Shown here piece after piece: positions 3,824 to 9,660 of a stretch of DNA of 16,211 nt. The notes beneath the pieces were generated by a model. The model ran no database searches and was not told where the DNA came from. It worked only from the letters and a program-made list of their open reading frames with translations. The stretch's first letter is position 1; every line of letters starts with the position of its first letter. The DNA lies in NCBI GenBank assembly GCA_902801585.1, contig CADCIU010000061.1, positions 1 through 16,211 of the forward strand, in the 5' to 3' direction. This DNA is from an uncultured Lachnospiraceae bacterium (GTDB taxonomy: Bacteria > Bacillota_A > Clostridia > Lachnospirales > Lachnospiraceae). A program made the translations under genes and the position numbers.

Positions 3824-3877
3824 AAGACCTCTGGGGTAGTTTGTCCACAGTTGTGGACAAACTACCCCAGAGGTCTT
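3824..3877. repeat. Perfect palindrome made of two repeat copies (A and B)
   Basis: Copy A (3824-3849, forward) and copy B (3852-3877, reverse) are perfect reverse complements over 26 bases, separated by only two bases (GT). The core is GACCTCTGGGGTAGTTTGTCC. They lie between the membrane-anchored protein gene and hisJ. On the minus strand the hairpin is followed by TCTTTCTTCC, so it could serve as a weak terminator after the gene ending at 3963. The same core recurs at 3878-3937, in carA and in carB. Confidence 0.9.
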
Positions 3878-3899
3878 GGACAAACTCCCCCAGAGGTCT
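3878..3899 (-). repeat. Repeat copy C, one base changed
   Basis: This is a reverse-orientation copy directly abutting copy B. It matches B over the core except for CTCCCCC in place of CTACCCC. It is followed by TTGTGCTC, a short extension also found after copy D, so C and D share a slightly longer unit 37 bases apart. Confidence 0.85.
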
Positions 3900-3911
3900 T
3901 GTGCTCCCCGT

Positions 3912-3937
3912 TGTGGACAAACTACCCCAGAGGTCTT
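3912..3937 (-). repeat. Repeat copy D
   Basis: This reverse-orientation copy is identical to copy B over 26 bases. It lies 25 bases downstream, in transcription order, of the stop codon of the gene at 3963-4475. With A, B and C it makes a cluster of four copies filling 3824-3937 of an otherwise gene-free gap. Confidence 0.9.
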
Positions 3938-3962
3938 GTGCTCAGTCATGTACTCTCGCGGT

Positions 3963-4475
3963 TCACTGACTCACTTCCAGCAGTTTCTTCTCTATTCTCG
4001 CCATTGTATCGACATAGTATGCATACTCAGCCGCCGTAAGCTCTTCTTCGTCAATCTGATCCAGTTTCTCCATGGCATCCGCATACTTTGTCATGTAATC
4101 GGCATAGTCCATGAGCATCGAAGTGGGATCATCAGAATCCTCATATGTCTTCATGAACTCGACATATCCATCGAAGAACGCTTCATAACTGTCCATAGCT
4201 TCCTTGAATTCCGGTGAGATCTCATCCTCGGAACGTTCTTCAGAAGCCTCCTGTTCATCTTCCACAGCGTCTTCATCCGGCTGTTCAGCTTCTGCCTCTG
4301 TTTCTTCCTCTTTTGTTTCCTGTTCCTCTGTAGCCGCCGCATCCTGCGCGGCCGTGACTTCTTCTGTCTCTTGTTTCTGAGCGCTCTGCTCCTGATTCTT
4401 TGTTCCGAATCTGCCGCCTCCAAAAAAGGCAAAAAGAATGAGCAGCACAATGACAACACCTATTATCTTTTTCAT
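3963..4475 (-). CDS. Membrane-anchored acidic protein, DUF6591-like
   Basis: The start at ATG 4475 is chosen because CAGGAGGTTTT lies immediately upstream and the protein then begins with a typical anchor (MKKIIGVVIVLLILFAFFGG). An in-frame ATG at 4553 would bury that segment and lacks a ribosome site. The product is 170 residues: a short N-terminal membrane helix (no lipobox cysteine), a very acidic Glu/Gln/Ala-rich linker at about residues 30-85, and a helical C-terminal domain with FKEAMDSYEAFFDGYVEFM and DYADYMTKYADAMEKL. The C-terminal domain resembles, from memory, a DUF6591-type domain of Clostridia. It probably faces the outside of the cell. No enzymatic motif is visible and its function is unknown. 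It follows the HTH gene on the same strand after a 135-base gap containing a palindrome. Confidence 0.8.
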   Translation of the reverse strand: MKKIIGVVIVLLILFAFFGGGRFGTKNQEQSAQKQETEEVTAAQDAAATEEQETKEEETEAEAEQPDEDAVEDEQEASEERSEDEISPEFKEAMDSYEAFFDGYVEFMKTYEDSDDPTSMLMDYADYMTKYADAMEKLDQIDEEELTAAEYAYYVDTMARIEKKLLEVSQ

Positions 4476-4548
4476 AAAACCTCCTGCTTGTTTTCTGATC
4501 CGTTTATGGTCATATATTTCAGTATATCTTTCTGTTCTATCCGGAGTA

Positions 4549-4563
4549 TTCACGATTCGTGAA
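4549..4563. promoter_or_regulatory. 15-base palindrome, possible operator
   Basis: TTCACGA-T-TCGTGAA is a perfect inverted repeat with 7-base arms. It lies between the HTH gene and the membrane-anchored protein gene. A possible leftward -10 (TATACT, 4526-4521) sits about 25 bases further on, with no good -35, so the site could be an operator. The neighbouring HTH protein is an obvious candidate binder, but nothing in the sequence proves it. Confidence 0.3.
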
Positions 4564-4610
4564 CATCGAAACTCCTGTCCGAACCTGCATCTTTTGGTCC
4601 GACACGCCGT

Positions 4611-4841
4611 TTACTCTTCCGGGTCTCTCATAAAATCCTCCAATGACGCCCTGTAATGCAGCGCGATCTCAAAGAAAGTCTCAAGATCAGGCAGCCGGTA
4701 CCCGCTCTCATAATTGGCAATTGTCGTTGCTCCATATCCAAGCAGTTCTCCCAGCTGCTGCTGCGTCTCGCCATGCTCCAGACGGAGCCTCCTGATATTT
4801 GCTCCGATGACCTGCGTGCTGACGTTTCTTTTTTCTTCCAT
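4611..4841 (-). CDS. Small XRE-family HTH transcriptional regulator
   Basis: The start at ATG 4841 is preferred: AAAGGGGC lies upstream and the protein then starts right before the domain (MEEKRNVSTQVIGANIRRLR). An upstream in-frame ATG at 4949 would add 36 residues that look like untranslated leader. The 76-residue product is a single Cro/C1-type helix-turn-helix: GETQQQLGELLGYGATTIAN forms helices 2 and 3 at about residues 24-43, followed by YESGYRLPDLETFFEIALHY. There is no effector or dimerisation domain. It is transcribed away from carA, and its upstream region overlaps the carAB promoter region, so it could regulate itself, the downstream membrane protein gene or carAB. The target is inference only. 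Confidence 0.85.
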   Translation of the reverse strand: MEEKRNVSTQVIGANIRRLRLEHGETQQQLGELLGYGATTIANYESGYRLPDLETFFEIALHYRASLEDFMRDPEE

Positions 4842-4905
4842 GATTCTGCCCCTTTCTGCCTTTCGGCAAATAGAATGATTTGTTCTACTTAAGGAGCTGT
4901 AAATC

Positions 4906-4925
4906 CTGCGCATAAGCAATGAGCC
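4906..4925 (+). repeat. Direct repeat, left copy (flanks carAB promoter)
   Basis: CTGCGCATAAGCAATGAGCC here recurs at 5057-5076 with one mismatch (A to G). The two copies are 151 bases apart and bracket the carAB promoter and leader hairpin. They could be regulator sites or the trace of a duplication. No protein is proposed. Confidence 0.7.
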
Positions 4926-4942
4926 CTTAACTGCACTGCCTC

Positions 4943-4970
4943 TTGACAAATCCCCGCTTCAGCCTATAAT
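4943..4970 (+). promoter_or_regulatory. Sigma-A promoter for carAB
   Basis: There is a perfect TTGACA (4943-4948), a 16-base spacer and a perfect TATAAT (4965-4970). Transcription would begin near 4977, leaving about 130 bases of leader before the carA ATG at 5106. This is the strongest promoter-like sequence seen in the window. Confidence 0.8.
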
Positions 4971-4997
4971 TTTTACAAATGAAATATTGAAATCCTC

Positions 4998-5048
4998 AAG
5001 GCGCAATGACGTGCCGGAGCCCAAGAGCTTCGGGGGTCATTGCGCCTT
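4998..5048 (+). promoter_or_regulatory. Long hairpin in the carAB leader, candidate attenuator
   Basis: AAGGCGCAATGAC (4998-5010) pairs perfectly with 5036-5048 over 13 bases. An inner 7-bp stem (CCGGAGC with GCTTCGG, one G-T pair) closes on a CCAAGA loop. The structure is followed by CTTCTTGCGTTCT, which is U-rich but not a clean U-run. It begins about 20 bases after the predicted transcription start, so it should form in the carAB message. I do not see a convincing PyrR-binding loop. Arginine- or pyrimidine-dependent attenuation, or a protein target, are possible. Confidence 0.55.
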
Positions 5049-5056
5049 CTTGCGTT

Positions 5057-5076
5057 CTGCGCGTAAGCAATGAGCC
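5057..5076 (+). repeat. Direct repeat, right copy (flanks carAB promoter)
   Basis: This is the second copy of the 20-base repeat (19 of 20 identical to 4906-4925), placed between the leader hairpin and carA. Its CTGCGC end can also pair with GCGCAG just downstream (from 5078), forming a small hairpin ahead of the carA ribosome site. Confidence 0.7.
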
Positions 5077-5105
5077 ATGCGCAGTCAGAAAGGAAACCTC
5101 AGGAT

Positions 5106-6257
5106 ATGAAAAGAAAATGTGACCGTCAGATCATCCTCGAAGACGGGTCAAAATACAGCGGCTTCGGATTTGGCGGCATGCAGGACAAGATTCTGGAGAT
5201 CGTGTTCAACACTTCCATGGTCGGTTACCAGGAGATCCTCTCGGATCCGTCCTACACAGACCAGGCCGTCGTCATGACCTATCCTCTGATCGGCAACTAC
5301 GGCATGGCCAATGAGGACTATGAGACTGATATTCCCACGATCGGCGCGCTGATCGTACACGAATACAATGACGAGCCGTCCAATTTCCGAAGCAAAGCTT
5401 CCCTCGGTGACGTCATGAGCCGGTTCGGAATCGTGGGCATCAGCGGCGTAGACACCAGAAAGCTGAATCGGTCGATCAGAGATTTCGGAACGCGGAAATG
5501 CCTGATTACAGACATCTCGACGACTCTCGAAGAGGGGTTGGAAAAACTGCGCAGCTCCCAATTGCCCAATGATGCCGTATCAAGAGTCAGCAGCAAAGAA
5601 ATCTGGGACTCCCTTGCTCCGGCTCCCGCTCCTTTTCATGTCGTCCTCATCGACTGCGGCATGAAAAAGAACATCCTCCGCTCCCTGAACCGGCGCGGCT
5701 GTGATGTCACGGTCGTCCCCTGGGACACGACCTCTGGGGTAGTTTGTTCTTTAAGGCCGGACGGAGTCCTCATTTCCAACGGACCCGGCGATCCCACGGA
5801 TGTGCCCGAGACCATCGAAACCATAAGGGCACTGCGCGGCAGATTTCCCATCTTCGGCATCTGCCTGGGCCACCAGATCTTGTCTCTGGCCTACGGGGCA
5901 AAGACCTATAAGCTCAAGTTCGGACATCGCGGAGGAAACCATCCTGTGAGGGATTTAGCAACCGGCCGCATCGAGATCACATCGCAGAATCATTCCTACG
6001 CTGTGGACGCCGAATCCCTCGCGCAGACGGAACTCAGTGCTACGCATGTCAATATTTTGGACAATACTATCGAGGGAGTGAAGTGCGAAAGAGACCGCGC
6101 TTTCAGCGTCCAGTATCACCCGGAGAGCTCGCCGGGCCCGCAGGACAGCGCGTATCTGTTTGATCGTTTCATTGAGCTGATGCAGGGAGCACGCAGAAAC
6201 AGCACTCCCGGAACGTCTGGCAGTCAGCTCGATGCAAAGGAGGTGCCCCATGCCTAA
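5106..6257 (+). CDS. carA: Carbamoyl-phosphate synthase small (glutaminase) subunit
   Basis: CarA hydrolyses glutamine and channels ammonia to CarB for carbamoyl phosphate, the entry to pyrimidine and arginine synthesis. The start at ATG 5106 has AGAAAGGA upstream (spacing about 11) and lies at the usual distance from the domain; an in-frame ATG at 5070 has no ribosome site and falls in the leader repeat. The 383 residues show the N-terminal CarA domain (ILEDGSKYSGFGFG, NTSMVGYQEILSDPSY) and a class I amidotransferase domain with nucleophile Cys253 in FGICLGHQ and His338/Glu340 in QYHPESSPGP. Residues 208-214 (TTSGVVC) are encoded by a copy of the dispersed repeat, yet the spacing to LRPDGVLISNGPGDP is the same as in E. 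coli CarA. The gene overlaps carB by 8 bases, implying coupled translation. Confidence 0.97.
   Translation: MKRKCDRQIILEDGSKYSGFGFGGMQDKILEIVFNTSMVGYQEILSDPSYTDQAVVMTYPLIGNYGMANEDYETDIPTIGALIVHEYNDEPSNFRSKASLGDVMSRFGIVGISGVDTRKLNRSIRDFGTRKCLITDISTTLEEGLEKLRSSQLPNDAVSRVSSKEIWDSLAPAPAPFHVVLIDCGMKKNILRSLNRRGCDVTVVPWDTTSGVVCSLRPDGVLISNGPGDPTDVPETIETIRALRGRFPIFGICLGHQILSLAYGAKTYKLKFGHRGGNHPVRDLATGRIEITSQNHSYAVDAESLAQTELSATHVNILDNTIEGVKCERDRAFSVQYHPESSPGPQDSAYLFDRFIELMQGARRNSTPGTSGSQLDAKEVPHA
5728..5749 (+). repeat. Repeat copy E inside carA
   Basis: CGACCTCTGGGGTAGTTTGTTC is a forward copy read in the frame giving TTSGVVC. Unlike the carB copies it does not lengthen the protein compared with family members, so it either replaced the native codons or is itself the source of the family. 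Confidence 0.85.
6236..6244 (+). promoter_or_regulatory. Ribosome binding site deciding the carB start
   Basis: AAAGGAGGT, near perfect, sits 5 bases before ATG 6250 and inside the end of carA. It rules out the in-frame ATG at 6232, which precedes it. Confidence 0.85.
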
Positions 6258-9200
6258 ACGCACCGATATCCACAAGATCCTCGTCATCGGCTCCGGACCC
6301 ATCGTGATCGGACAGGCGGCCGAGTTTGACTACGCCGGGACTCAGGCCTGCCTCGCGCTCAAGGAGGAGGATTACGAGGTGATCCTGTGCAATTCCAACC
6401 CCGCGACGATCATGACAGATACGTCGATTGCGGACAAAGTCTACATGGAACCTCTGACTCTGGAATACATTGCCAAAATAGTGCGCAAAGAGAGGCCGGA
6501 CGCTATTTTGCCAGGGATCGGCGGCCAGACGGGGCTCAATCTGGCGATGCAGCTGGAGAAAAAGGGCATCCTCGCTGAATGCCGCACGGAGCTTTTGGGC
6601 ACAAAGAGCCGGTCAATTGAGCAGGCGGAAGACCGCGAGCTGTTCAAGGAGTTGTGCCTTCGTCTGGGCGAGCCCGTCCTGCCGTCGGAGATTGCCTGCT
6701 CCATGGAAGAAGGCCTGCAGGCGGCGCGCGATATCGGCTACCCTGTCGTTCTGCGGCCGGCTTTCACTCTCGGGGGAACCGGAGGCGGATTTGCGGACAG
6801 TGAAGAGGAGTTCATTCCCATCATGAAAAATGCCCTCGCGCTCTCCCCGGTCAGCCAGGTGCTGATTGAGAAAAGTGTGAAGGGTTACAAGGAAATTGAA
6901 TATGAAGTGATGCGCGACCGGAACGACACTGCCATCACCATCTGCAACATGGAAAACATGGATCCGGTGGGCATCCACACCGGGGATTCCATTGTCGTGT
7001 GCCCTTCGCAGACCCTTACCAACAGGGAGTATCACATGCTGCGCGACAGTGCGCTCAAGGTGATCCGCGCCCTTGAGATCGAAGGCGGCTGCAACGTCCA
7101 GTTCGCGCTGGATCCGAATTCTTTTCAGTATTACCTGATCGAAGTCAATCCGCGTGTTTCCCGCTCGTCGGCTCTTGCCTCCAAAGCCAGCGGTTATCCC
7201 ATCGCCCGCGTCTCCGCCAAAATCGGCATCGGAATGACGCTCGACGAGATCCCGCTTGCCAATACGCCTGCTTCCTTTGAGCCGGCCCTCGACTATATTG
7301 TCACCAAGATGCCGCGCTTTCCTTTTGATAAGTTCACGGAGGCGGACAACTCGCTCTCCACGCAGATGAAGGCGACCGGTGAAGTCATGAGCATCGGCCG
7401 GACACTGGAGGAGAGCCTCCTCAAAGCGGTCCGGTCTCTCGAGACAGGACACTGTCATCTGAGTGATCCAAAGTTTGATCTTTTGTCTACTTCAGAGCTT
7501 CTTAAATACATCCGCACCGGCACAGACGACCGCATCTTCGCAGTCGCAGAACTGCTTCGCCGCGAACAATCGACCTCTGGGGTAATTTGTTCGGGACAAT
7601 CGACCTCTGGGGTAGTTTGTCGCGAACAATCGACCTCTGGGGTAGTTTGTCGCACGCTTGAGGAGAAGATCCACCGCCAAAGCGGTATCGACCTCTTCTT
7701 CCTGCGCGCAATACGCCGGATTGTTCAGGAAGAAAAAGCACTGGCCGCTGCGCCCGGCGATCCGGAAGAACTGCGTGAAGCCAAGCGATTAGGCTTCTCG
7801 GACCGGGCAATCGGTTTACTTTGGGATCTGCCTGAAGAGGCTGTCTTCGCAATGCGGAAGAGATACGGCATCATGCCTGTCTATAAGATGATCGATACCT
7901 GCGCCTCGGAATTTGAGAGCTACGTTCCCTATTTTTACTCTACATATGAGAACTCCGGCCAACAAATTACCCCAGAGGTCGATTGGAGCCCAGCTGTCAG
8001 CCCCGGCCAACAACTTACCCCAGAGGTCGTTGAGGTCGTTCTCCCCGACCTCCCTGAACACGCTGAACAAATTACCCCAGAGGTCGACCTCCCCGAGAAC
8101 GAAGTGGTCCTCTCCGACAAGAAGAAAGTGATCGTACTCGGCGCCGGCCCCATCCGAATCGGGCAAGGGGTGGAATTTGACTACTCCTCCGTTCACGCAG
8201 TGCAGACGATCCAAAAAGCGGGATACGAAGCAATCATCATCAACAACAACCCGGAAACAGTTTCTACGGACTACACATGCTCAGATAAGCTTTACTTTGA
8301 ACCGCTCTGCGTAGAAGATGTAATGAATGTCATAGAAATGGAAAAACCGGAAGGCGTCATCGCGACTCTCGGAGGCCAGACTGCGATCAACCTGGCAGAT
8401 CCGCTTCGCGCCCGCGGTGTCAGGATCATCGGCACAGACTGCGACGCCATCGACCGGGCAGAAAACCGAGACCTGTTCGAGAAGTTACTCGAGACGCTGG
8501 GAATCCCGCAGCCCAAGGGATGCGCCGTTACTTCCGCAGCGGAAGGACTCAAGGCCGCCAAAGAGATCGGCTACCCTGTGCTTGTACGTCCCAGCTTTGT
8601 CCTGGGCGGCAGGGCTATGCAGATCGTCGCAAAAGAAGCGGACCTGCGCAGTTATCTGAAGACAGCCGAACCCATCGACGAAACAAGGCCTGTCCTCGTG
8701 GACCACTATATCCGCGGCAAGGAAGTGGAAGTAGATGCTGTTTGCGACGGTGAGCGCGTTTTTGTCCCGGGCATCATGGAACTGGTCGAGCGGACCGGCG
8801 TCCATTCAGGCGATTCGATCAGCGTCTATCCTCCTTACAGCCTCTCGGCCGGTGTCAGGAAGACCATCCTCGACTACACGGAAAGGCTCGGTCTCGGCAT
8901 TGGGATCCGCGGCCTCTTCAACATCCAGTTCATCGTCGATGAGCGGGAAAACGTCTACATCATCGAGGTCAACCCTCGCTCCTCGCGGACTGTTCCCTTC
9001 CTCTCCAAGGCGACCGGCTACAGCCTTGCGGATATCGCCACACTCGTCAGCCTCGGCATCACTTTAAAAGGCCAGGGCCTCATCGTGCGCTATCCCGCCG
9101 AAAAATCGCGTTATTACGTCAAAGTACCGGCTTTCTCCTTCTCCAAGCTCCGCGGTATGGACGCCTACCTCTCTCCGGAGATGAAGTCCACCGGCGAAGC

Positions 9201-9660
9201 CATCGGATATGACAAAAAGCTCCATCGCGCCGTCTACAAGGCCATGATCGCTTCCGGCATGACGCTCCGCAATTACGGCACTGTCCTTGTCAGTGTTGCC
9301 GACGAGGACAAAACAGAGACCATCCCTTTGGTTCGCCGCTTCTATGAGATGGGCTTTAACATCGAGGCGACGACACTGACTGCAGAATATCTGCGAGATG
9401 CAGGTATCAAGACCCGTGTCCTGCACAAGCCCAGTGAAAACAGTGAGGAGATGCTCGACTCCATTCGCGCAGGTTACGTCAGCTATGTCATCAACACGCG
9501 CGCGATCCTCTCCGGTGTGCATTACGGAGACGGCGTCGCGCTCCGCAGCATCGCCGCGCAGAACAACGTTGTGATGCTCACCTCTCTTGACACTGTGCGC
9601 ATGCTGCTGGATGTGCTGGAGGAGGTCACCATGGGAATATCGACGATCGACGCAGAATGA
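6250..9660 (+). CDS. carB: Carbamoyl-phosphate synthase large subunit with repeat-encoded inserts
   Basis: CarB makes carbamoyl phosphate from bicarbonate, two ATP and ammonia supplied by CarA. The start at 6250 is fixed by the ribosome site at 6236. The domains are complete: a first ATP-grasp half (ILVIGSGPIVIGQAAEFDYA, LRPAFTLGGTGGG, IEVNPRVSRSSALASKASGY), the oligomerisation region, a second half beginning VIVLGAGPIRIGQGVEFDYS near residue 626 (VRPSFVLGGRAM, IEVNPRSSRTVPFLSKATGY), and the C-terminal MGS-like allosteric domain. At 1136 residues it is about 60-70 longer than usual (E. coli has 1073). The excess lies in two places: residues 438-467, three decapeptides ending STSGV(I/V)C in the oligomerisation region, and about 567-620, containing three QxTPEV segments at the junction of the halves. 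Both are in frame and no catalytic motif is touched, so the enzyme is probably active. Confidence 0.97.
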   Translation: MPKRTDIHKILVIGSGPIVIGQAAEFDYAGTQACLALKEEDYEVILCNSNPATIMTDTSIADKVYMEPLTLEYIAKIVRKERPDAILPGIGGQTGLNLAMQLEKKGILAECRTELLGTKSRSIEQAEDRELFKELCLRLGEPVLPSEIACSMEEGLQAARDIGYPVVLRPAFTLGGTGGGFADSEEEFIPIMKNALALSPVSQVLIEKSVKGYKEIEYEVMRDRNDTAITICNMENMDPVGIHTGDSIVVCPSQTLTNREYHMLRDSALKVIRALEIEGGCNVQFALDPNSFQYYLIEVNPRVSRSSALASKASGYPIARVSAKIGIGMTLDEIPLANTPASFEPALDYIVTKMPRFPFDKFTEADNSLSTQMKATGEVMSIGRTLEESLLKAVRSLETGHCHLSDPKFDLLSTSELLKYIRTGTDDRIFAVAELLRREQSTSGVICSGQSTSGVVCREQSTSGVVCRTLEEKIHRQSGIDLFFLRAIRRIVQEEKALAAAPGDPEELREAKRLGFSDRAIGLLWDLPEEAVFAMRKRYGIMPVYKMIDTCASEFESYVPYFYSTYENSGQQITPEVDWSPAVSPGQQLTPEVVEVVLPDLPEHAEQITPEVDLPENEVVLSDKKKVIVLGAGPIRIGQGVEFDYSSVHAVQTIQKAGYEAIIINNNPETVSTDYTCSDKLYFEPLCVEDVMNVIEMEKPEGVIATLGGQTAINLADPLRARGVRIIGTDCDAIDRAENRDLFEKLLETLGIPQPKGCAVTSAAEGLKAAKEIGYPVLVRPSFVLGGRAMQIVAKEADLRSYLKTAEPIDETRPVLVDHYIRGKEVEVDAVCDGERVFVPGIMELVERTGVHSGDSISVYPPYSLSAGVRKTILDYTERLGLGIGIRGLFNIQFIVDERENVYIIEVNPRSSRTVPFLSKATGYSLADIATLVSLGITLKGQGLIVRYPAEKSRYYVKVPAFSFSKLRGMDAYLSPEMKSTGEAIGYDKKLHRAVYKAMIASGMTLRNYGTVLVSVADEDKTETIPLVRRFYEMGFNIEATTLTAEYLRDAGIKTRVLHKPSENSEEMLDSIRAGYVSYVINTRAILSGVHYGDGVALRSIAAQNNVVMLTSLDTVRMLLDVLEEVTMGISTIDAE
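7561..7650 (+). repeat. 3 x 30-bp tandem array in carB (copies F, G, H)
   Basis: Three consecutive 30-base units each contain the forward repeat core: 7571-7590, 7601-7620 and 7631-7650. The unit is (CGCGAACAAT or TCGGGACAAT) plus CGACCTCTGGGGTARTTTGT. Copy F has TAATTT where G and H have TAGTTT. Each unit adds ten residues of the type REQSTSGVVC, inserted between LLRR and RTLEEKIHRQSGID, where relatives run straight on. Confidence 0.95.
7961..7981 (-). repeat. Repeat copy I in carB, inverted
   Basis: AACAAATTACCCCAGAGGTCG is a reverse copy that exactly complements copy F (7571-7591) over 21 bases. It is read in frame as Q-I-T-P-E-V in the junction between the two CarB halves. Confidence 0.9.
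8009..8029 (-). repeat. Repeat copy J in carB, inverted
   Basis: AACAACTTACCCCAGAGGTCG is a reverse copy with one base different from copies I and K. It is 48 bases after copy I and is read as Q-L-T-P-E-V. The following bases repeat GAGGTCGTT. Confidence 0.9.
8065..8087 (-). repeat. Repeat copy K in carB, inverted
   Basis: This reverse copy is 57 bases after copy J, again read as Q-I-T-P-E-V. All 23 bases complement copy F at 7570-7592, making a long-range perfect inverted repeat within carB. Confidence 0.9.

What the first reader, a model, noticed from the sequence alone, without database searches (positions are those of the whole stretch)
3824..8087. Dispersed ~20-26-bp repeat family present in 11 copies, in genes and between genes
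The core GACCTCTGGGGTARTTTGT occurs forward at 3825, 5728, 7571, 7601 and 7631 and reversed at 3852, 3878, 3912, 7961, 8009 and 8065, nearly without divergence. Five of its six reading frames are open (only the PLG-stop frame closes). All four forward genic copies use the TSGVV frame and all three reverse ones use the TPEV frame. No transposase or long element accompanies it. This looks like a coding-compatible proliferating element, in concept like Rickettsia palindromic elements, but much shorter and of a family I do not recognise. The mobiliser and any function are unknown.
Basis: partly seen in the sequence, partly recalled or inferred. Interest (0 to 1): 0.82.

Follow-up and report, generated by a model that had tools for sequence, protein, structure and literature searches.

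The report
Transposase-paired hairpin repeats invading carB
This is a family of tiny hairpin-forming DNA repeats that has spread through the genomes of a group of rumen bacteria, even into the middle of essential enzymes, and it appears to be moved by a partner single-strand transposase; the kind is known, but this branch of it has unusual features.

Summary
All 11 copies are real (chance 0.01). They belong to a genome-wide family, up to 235 exact copies of the 12-base head GACCTCTGGGGT per genome, found in 18 of 62 genomes of one Lachnospiraceae genus. None of 395 sampled genomes elsewhere in the family has more than one; a few copies occur in Oribacterium.

Of 921 distinct copies, 744 lie between genes. 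Many form inverted pairs at fixed spacing, as REPINs do (164 against 7 in the opposite arrangement). Some sites are filled in one relative and empty in another.

The likely mobiliser, absent from the window, is a RAYT (REP-associated tyrosine transposase). One RAYT clade occurs in 12 genomes, all with at least 12 copies; 44 of the other 50 have none. The head lies within 400 bp of 13 of 18 genes of that clade and of 0 of 13 other RAYTs tested. A head predicted from a paralogue's flank was found 57 times in its genome, at most 3 times in the other 61.

Verdict: new variant of the RAYT/REPIN kind, apparently marked at the hairpin apex and expanded in frame inside carB. Cleavage by RAYT is inferred; the window's own genome is not held.

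The parts
3824..3877 (.). Inverted pair (REPIN-type palindrome): forward copy 3826-3844, 12-nt spacer, reverse copy 3857-3875; intergenic
   Evidence: Exact arms of 26 nt; stem folds as DNA at -30.4 kcal/mol, z -12.5; the same spacing (12-mer starts 38 apart) in 108 of 164 distinct outward pairs in relatives
3880..3898 (-). Repeat copy, one mismatch, intergenic
3917..3935 (-). Repeat copy, exact, intergenic
5729..5747 (+). Repeat copy inside carA (reads TSGVV); a substitution-like copy, with no length change against relatives
   Evidence: 11 of 11 carA regions of equal length, with the sequence present exactly, with mismatches or absent
7572..7590 (+). Repeat copy in carB oligomerisation domain, first of three 30-nt units (reads TSGVI)
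7602..7620 (+). Repeat copy in carB, second 30-nt unit (TSGVV)
7632..7650 (+). Repeat copy in carB, third 30-nt unit (TSGVV)
7962..7980 (-). Repeat copy in carB linker between the two halves (reads ITPEV)
   Evidence: G014, G015 and G016 have no copy in this linker
8010..8028 (-). Repeat copy in carB linker, one mismatch (LTPEV)
8067..8085 (-). Repeat copy in carB linker (ITPEV)
5106..6257 (+). carA, host gene of one copy
   Evidence: gene call; relatives aligned; gene name by recognition of the sequence
6250..9660 (+). carB, host gene of six copies
   Evidence: gene call; relatives at 87-91% identity over about full length

Best explanation
The repeat is a non-autonomous, hairpin-forming element of the REP/REPIN kind, mobilised in trans by a cognate RAYT, a single-strand HUH/Y1 endonuclease of the IS200/IS605 superfamily. 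Shown: an invariant 12-base head (GACC-TCTGG-GGT), arms that differ by lineage, inverted pairs of fixed polarity and spacing, filled and empty orthologous sites, and co-occurrence and physical linkage with one RAYT clade, while other RAYTs carry other hairpins. Inferred: when the element is single-stranded, for example on the lagging strand, the RAYT recognises the folded head, cuts beside it and joins a copy elsewhere. Within genes, copies survive when they land in tolerant loops in an open frame (carB linker and oligomerisation domain) and then expand as in-frame units by slippage or unequal recombination.
Against: The window's own genome is not held, so its RAYT is not seen. Four genomes hold 5 to 19 heads without a clade A RAYT (G006, G010, G013, G057); incomplete assemblies or lost genes would explain this but were not shown. 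Five of 18 clade A genes lack an exact head nearby; at least G016C22, G009C61 and G023C24 carry variant heads. Within single genomes arm complementarity does not exceed shuffles (z -0.7 to 2.0), single window copies fold weakly (z -0.1 and -1.4), and 56-spaced pairs show no covariation (0.71 against 0.745 shuffled). A second hairpin family is abundant in six genomes without any RAYT hit. The carA copy has no length change. Strong regional clustering is not explained.
Confidence: 0.8

Rival explanations
1. A DNA-uptake-type or otherwise selected sequence motif: the 12-mer is kept by selection for a sequence-specific receptor and arises by point mutation, with dialects per lineage.
For: Invariant 12-mer with free flanks and lineage dialects. 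The carA copy matches this mode: equal length in 11 of 11 relatives and stepwise mismatches.
Against: Length-changing presence/absence at other sites, fixed-spacing inverted pairs, tandem arrays, strong clustering (G023: 32 of 52 heads in 36 kb of 2.7 Mb) and linkage to a transposase. Competence genes were not searched.
Confidence: 0.06
2. A regulatory or terminator element: a repeated hairpin acting as operator or transcription terminator in nitrogen and nucleotide metabolism genes.
For: In G006 many copies sit in a cluster whose genes look like carAB, purF, amtB, gltB, gltD, pyrG and glnA (named by eye). Inverted pairs fold strongly. Copies are mostly intergenic.
Against: Copies lie inside reading frames and in arrays; other clusters hold unrelated genes; no Rfam match in the window; no such role explains RAYT linkage and paralogue-specific heads. 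Secondary exaptation of some copies is not excluded.
Confidence: 0.06
3. Local duplication plus gene conversion only: copies spread between neighbouring sites by recombination and slippage without a dedicated mobiliser.
For: Clustering; tandem units of 17, 30 or 35 nt; the L034 site shows copied local sequence next to the repeat; G016 carB units carry that genome's own dialect (TSGVIF), as if converted.
Against: Does not predict the RAYT association, nor the separate head families of RAYT paralogues, nor 12 to 235 copies spread over many contigs. It probably contributes within genes.
Confidence: 0.06
4. Mobilised by ordinary IS200/IS605 TnpA rather than by the RAYT.
For: IS200-type Y1 proteins are common in the genus; 44 of 62 genomes have some Y1 match.
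Against: G033 has 38 Y1 matches and no head; heads flank clade A RAYT genes. Flanks of IS200 genes were not scanned for heads.
Confidence: 0.02

Closest known systems
REPINs and RAYTs of Pseudomonas and enterobacteria (PMC3116915, passages seen; PMC8266576, abstract and part of the discussion seen)
   Same: Conserved ends arranged as inverted doublets at fixed distance with variable spacer, RAYT gene flanked by its own family, several RAYT-repeat pairs per genome, mostly extragenic
   Different: No GTAG foot tag; the conserved part is the hairpin head; the RAYTs are about 250 aa, longer than group 2 and 3 proteins; hosts are rumen Lachnospiraceae; strong regional clustering; many copies inside carB
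TIRYTs with terminal inverted repeats, TnpAY1 subclass 2.1 (PMC3733652 section 16 and PMC6006769 sections 11, 12 and part of 15 seen)
   Same: Longer Y1 protein with NHVH, FQ and Y-x-x-NP signatures; flanking inverted repeats, a few families of which are multi-copy and form dimers; GGGG-containing motif
   Different: PMC6006769 reports no REP-like sequences for subclass 2.1; here the flanking hairpins belong to families of up to about 200 copies. The TIR motif GGGGWSAS is not an exact match to either head
Intragenic REPs and Rickettsia RPE-4/RPE-6 (PMC3733652 section 15 seen)
   Same: Palindromic repeats in frame within genes of functional proteins, including grouped copies
   Different: Different tag, sequence and host; here copy number at one carB site varies between close relatives and follows the lineage dialect
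Small dispersed repeats of cyanobacteria (recalled; not found)
   Same: 20-30 bp dispersed repeats invading other sequences
   Different: No comparison was possible with the papers held

Membership tests
REPIN/RAYT system (broad sense) | Short palindromic repeat in high copy number (over about 100 per genome) | tested here: met
   160 to 235 exact heads in G001-G005 and G016, 105 in G009
REPIN/RAYT system (broad sense) | Predominantly extragenic | tested here: met
   744 of 921 distinct held copies intergenic, 168 genic, 9 edge; held DNA 82.5% coding by my codon model
REPIN/RAYT system (broad sense) | Inverted doublets at fixed spacing forming hairpins | tested here: met
   164 outward against 7 inward distinct pairs; 108 at 38 and 37 at 56; window pair folds z -12.5
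REPIN/RAYT system (broad sense) | RAYT gene flanked by its own repeat family | tested here: met
   13 of 18 clade A genes, 0 of 13 others tested; paralogue-specific heads
REPIN/RAYT system (broad sense) | RAYT has the HUH/Y1 REP-transposase fold | tested here: met
REPIN/RAYT system (broad sense) | RAYT cleaves the cognate single-stranded repeat | not testable with these tools
   needs purified protein
GTAG-tagged REP superfamily | GT[AG]G tetranucleotide unpaired at the foot of the hairpin | tested here: not met
   GTAG occurs inside the window's dialect (GGGGTAGTT) but not as a foot tag, and is absent from the G016, G065 and most G009 dialects
CGTC-tagged REP superfamily | CGTC tag at one end | not tested
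   -
TnpAY1 subclass 2.1 (TIRYT, Bertels group 1) | About 238 aa, NHVH, FQ, Y[IV]HLNP, C-terminal helix-turn-helix | tested here: inconclusive
   249 to 303 aa, NH[VIL]H, LFQ, Y[IV]H[QR]NP in 18 clade A proteins; five C-terminal helices in the model, but no HTH family above cut-off; the subclass profiles were not available
Rickettsia palindromic elements | Rickettsial palindromes with their own sequences | tested here: not met
   Host is Lachnospiraceae; sequences of RPEs were not compared
DNA uptake sequences | Even, dense spread; acquired without length change; competence uptake | tested here: inconclusive
   Clustered and length-changing at about 9 sites, but the carA copy shows no length change; competence not tested

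The most novel reading that the evidence does not exclude
A distinct branch of RAYT/REPIN systems in Bacillota in which the transposase reads the hairpin apex, not a foot tag: each RAYT paralogue has its own invariant head while the arms drift freely, giving lineage dialects. These elements use essential enzymes such as carB as tolerated landing pads, where in-frame units multiply and are kept in step with the genome-wide dialect.
Probability: 0.45. Interest if true: 0.75.

Novelty: new variant of a known kind. Interest (0 to 1): 0.62.

Why it matters
Systematic searches had found no REP-like repeats next to the long, HTH-bearing RAYT subclass (PMC6006769, sections seen), leaving open what those proteins act on. 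Here several RAYT paralogues of similar type each sit beside a different hairpin family, and the head predicted from one flank was found genome-wide. That makes recognition testable by swapping heads between paralogues in vitro. The carB expansions also give a natural series (no copy to several copies, both orientations, several dialects) of repeat insertions in an essential enzyme.

Tried and rejected
A chance origin was rejected. Fixed conserved coding sequence was rejected: sites differ between relatives and carB unit number varies. The 19-mer as the unit was dropped for the 12-mer once G016 showed another dialect. Stop-free frames as the organising principle were rejected: only 168 of 921 copies are genic, though 111 of these use the TSGV or TPEV frame. 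The frame labels printed are wrong; the counts were mapped again by hand, checked on the carA copy.

A nitrogen-regulation role was considered after and not supported by other clusters. Intergenic preference by gene orientation was left unused: gap lengths were not de-duplicated between overlapping loci. Register values were biased at -2 and -3 and were recomputed with equal cells; pair counts were likewise de-duplicated. Decay of copies without a RAYT (one-mismatch to exact ratio 0.12-0.25 in G001-G005, 0.41 in G006, 1.33 in G010, 0.75 in G013) points the expected way, but numbers are small and G009, G012, G014 and G023 (0.35-0.45) blur it.

Literature: one search looked for the two heads and their complements as strings; 28 papers matched, 15 were listed, and none of those is on bacterial repeats. 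Searches found no report of such repeats in Lachnospiraceae among the rows listed. The Bertels 2017 paper on RAYT groups is not held; its group numbering is taken from PMC6006769.
Full report
Observation. The window holds 11 copies of the 19-mer at up to 3 mismatches (9 exact, 2 with one mismatch) against 0.01 expected. Ten carry an exact 12-base head GACCTCTGGGGT, five on each strand. Six are in carB, one in carA and four between genes. Two of the intergenic ones form a 50-bp palindrome with a stem of -30.4 kcal/mol.

Distribution. In 16 genomes reached from these, counts at up to 2 mismatches run from 1 to 226, with 0 for the reversed pattern in every one. In the genus of G005, 18 of 62 genomes have the exact 12-mer, up to 235 times. 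In 397 genomes drawn from the family, G005 has 185, 23 have exactly one (chance level; the reversed control behaves alike) and 373 none. So the expansion is lineage-limited, though the copies in two Oribacterium genomes (2 and 3 at up to 2 mismatches) show that it can occur outside. Those two share an insertion site just after a terminator-like hairpin, full pair in one and half in the other.

Anatomy. Only the 12-mer head is invariant across lineages. The next bases form dialects: AGTTTGT in G001-G005 and the window, C[AG]TTTTT in G016, CAAATGACC in G065, and 17-base tandem arrays in G009. The head can close on itself as GACC-TCTGG-GGTC. In G065 the arms complete a perfect 14-bp stem and in G016 a nearly perfect one. 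Over 921 distinct copies, complementarity of the arms peaks in the hairpin register (0.408 against 0.24-0.34 when slid) and exceeds shuffles by 8.9 sd overall, but not within any single genome (z -0.7 to 2.0); the signal therefore comes from differences between lineages, and in the window's own dialect single copies fold weakly. Copies often stand in inverted pairs with GACC outward: 164 distinct outward pairs against 7 inward, 108 at 38 and 37 at 56 bases between 12-mer starts. In the 38-spaced class the spacer shows compensatory changes (paired 0.839 against 0.787, sd 0.011, in shuffles); the 56-spaced class does not (0.710 against 0.745).

Mobility. Comparing flanks between relatives gave 16 clean filled/empty comparisons at about 9 sites, length differences 47 to 119 bases; these passed a filter on 1,533 flank matches, of which 437 had no head in the second genome. 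Direction (gain or loss) was not polarised. Some events lie next to GACCTC in the host sequence, and one copies local sequence.

Mobiliser. Reading genes around clusters showed a Y1 protein with the HUH motif within them. Searching the genus with it found 54 places in 28 of 62 genomes. The 18 places at 63% identity or more (clade A) lie in 12 genomes, each with 12 to 235 heads; of the other 50 genomes, 44 have none, two have one, and four have 5 to 19. I drew the clade boundary after seeing the counts; the tree of 31 proteins then showed it as one side of a branch with support 92/93. The head lies within 400 bp of 13 of 18 clade A genes and of none of 13 others. The 13 are 13 of the 36 remaining places; one further protein failed my extraction, and G006C8 has no downstream flank. 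Six of these 13 sit in genomes that do contain the repeat, which controls for genome-wide abundance.

Other pairs. The other RAYTs are flanked by other hairpins. AGAACCGTCCCC, seen beside RAYTs of G020, G022, G029 and G059, occurs 201, 126, 73 and 133 times there, but also 33 to 138 times in six genomes with no RAYT hit (G031, G038, G042, G047, G053, G054). CTACCTCTGGGGT, beside a second clade A gene of G016, occurs 57 times in G016 and at most 3 times in each of 61 others. GACCTTTGGGGT, beside G009C61, occurs 8 times in G009, all near that gene or a RAYT fragment on C83, 5 times in G002 and at most once elsewhere. So repeat heads track RAYT genes, including paralogues in one genome.

Inside genes. 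Genic copies are 168 of 921; 58 read TSGV, 53 TPEV, 26 PLG, 18 PQR, 9 PRG and 4 DLWG (labels corrected). In carB the oligomerisation-domain segment runs from 39 aa with one unit (G023) to 83 aa (G004); the window and G002 have three units, G011 five, and G006 and G010 a segment without recognisable units. G016 has three units in its own dialect, TSGVIF, at the same place, so units follow the genome's dialect, by re-insertion or conversion. The inter-half linker has none in G014, G015 and G016, one in G004, two in G003, three in the window and four in G001, G002 and G005, while G009 has copies of the other orientation. In carA the site has equal length in 11 of 11 genomes and grades from no match (G006, G010) through one mismatch (G009) to exact (window); this copy is substitution-like and remains unexplained.

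Clustering. All 17 copies of G006 lie on two contigs, and 32 of 52 heads of G023 in 36 kb. In G006 one region holds genes that look like nitrogen assimilation genes; regions in G009, G023 and G001 share other genes. PMC3733652 notes a clustered REP family in T. roseum as a precedent. The cause is unknown.

Verdict. It works like, and in the broad sense is, a RAYT-linked REPIN family; it is not a GTAG REP. The unusual parts are the apex-type head with drifting arms, paralogue-specific heads, a host group with no such report among the papers listed, and in-frame multiplication within carB. RAYT action, apex recognition and the copying step are inference.

Noticed in passing
window 4906-4925 and 5057-5076, hairpin about 5001-5047: A 20-base direct repeat CTGCGC[AG]TAAGCAATGAGCC flanks a GC-rich hairpin upstream of carA, possibly a leader or attenuator; no Rfam match at gathering score.
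   Followed up: no
G006 C32 38-75 kb (L155, L156): One repeat-rich region holds genes that look like carAB, purF, amtB, gltB, gltD, pyrG and glnA (named by eye); why repeats gather there is unexplained.
   Followed up: partly
genus of G005, for example G020, G053, G059: A second hairpin family with head AGAACCGTCCCC, up to 201 copies per genome, including six genomes without a RAYT hit.
   Followed up: partly
L004 873-922 and L046 2378-2396 (Oribacterium P6A1 and WCC10): The repeat lies at the same site after a terminator-like hairpin in both, as a full inverted pair in one and a half in the other; possible transfer between genera.
   Followed up: no
G006 and G010 carB: The oligomerisation-domain insertion site carries a 25-odd residue insert without recognisable repeat units, perhaps decayed copies.
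   Followed up: no
G033: 38 Y1 transposase matches, several identical, suggesting an active IS200-type expansion.
   Followed up: no
L119 (MAG labelled Ruminococcaceae, RUG12037): Four heads in a tandem array with GTTTTTCC spacers in a genome that was not searched whole.
   Followed up: no
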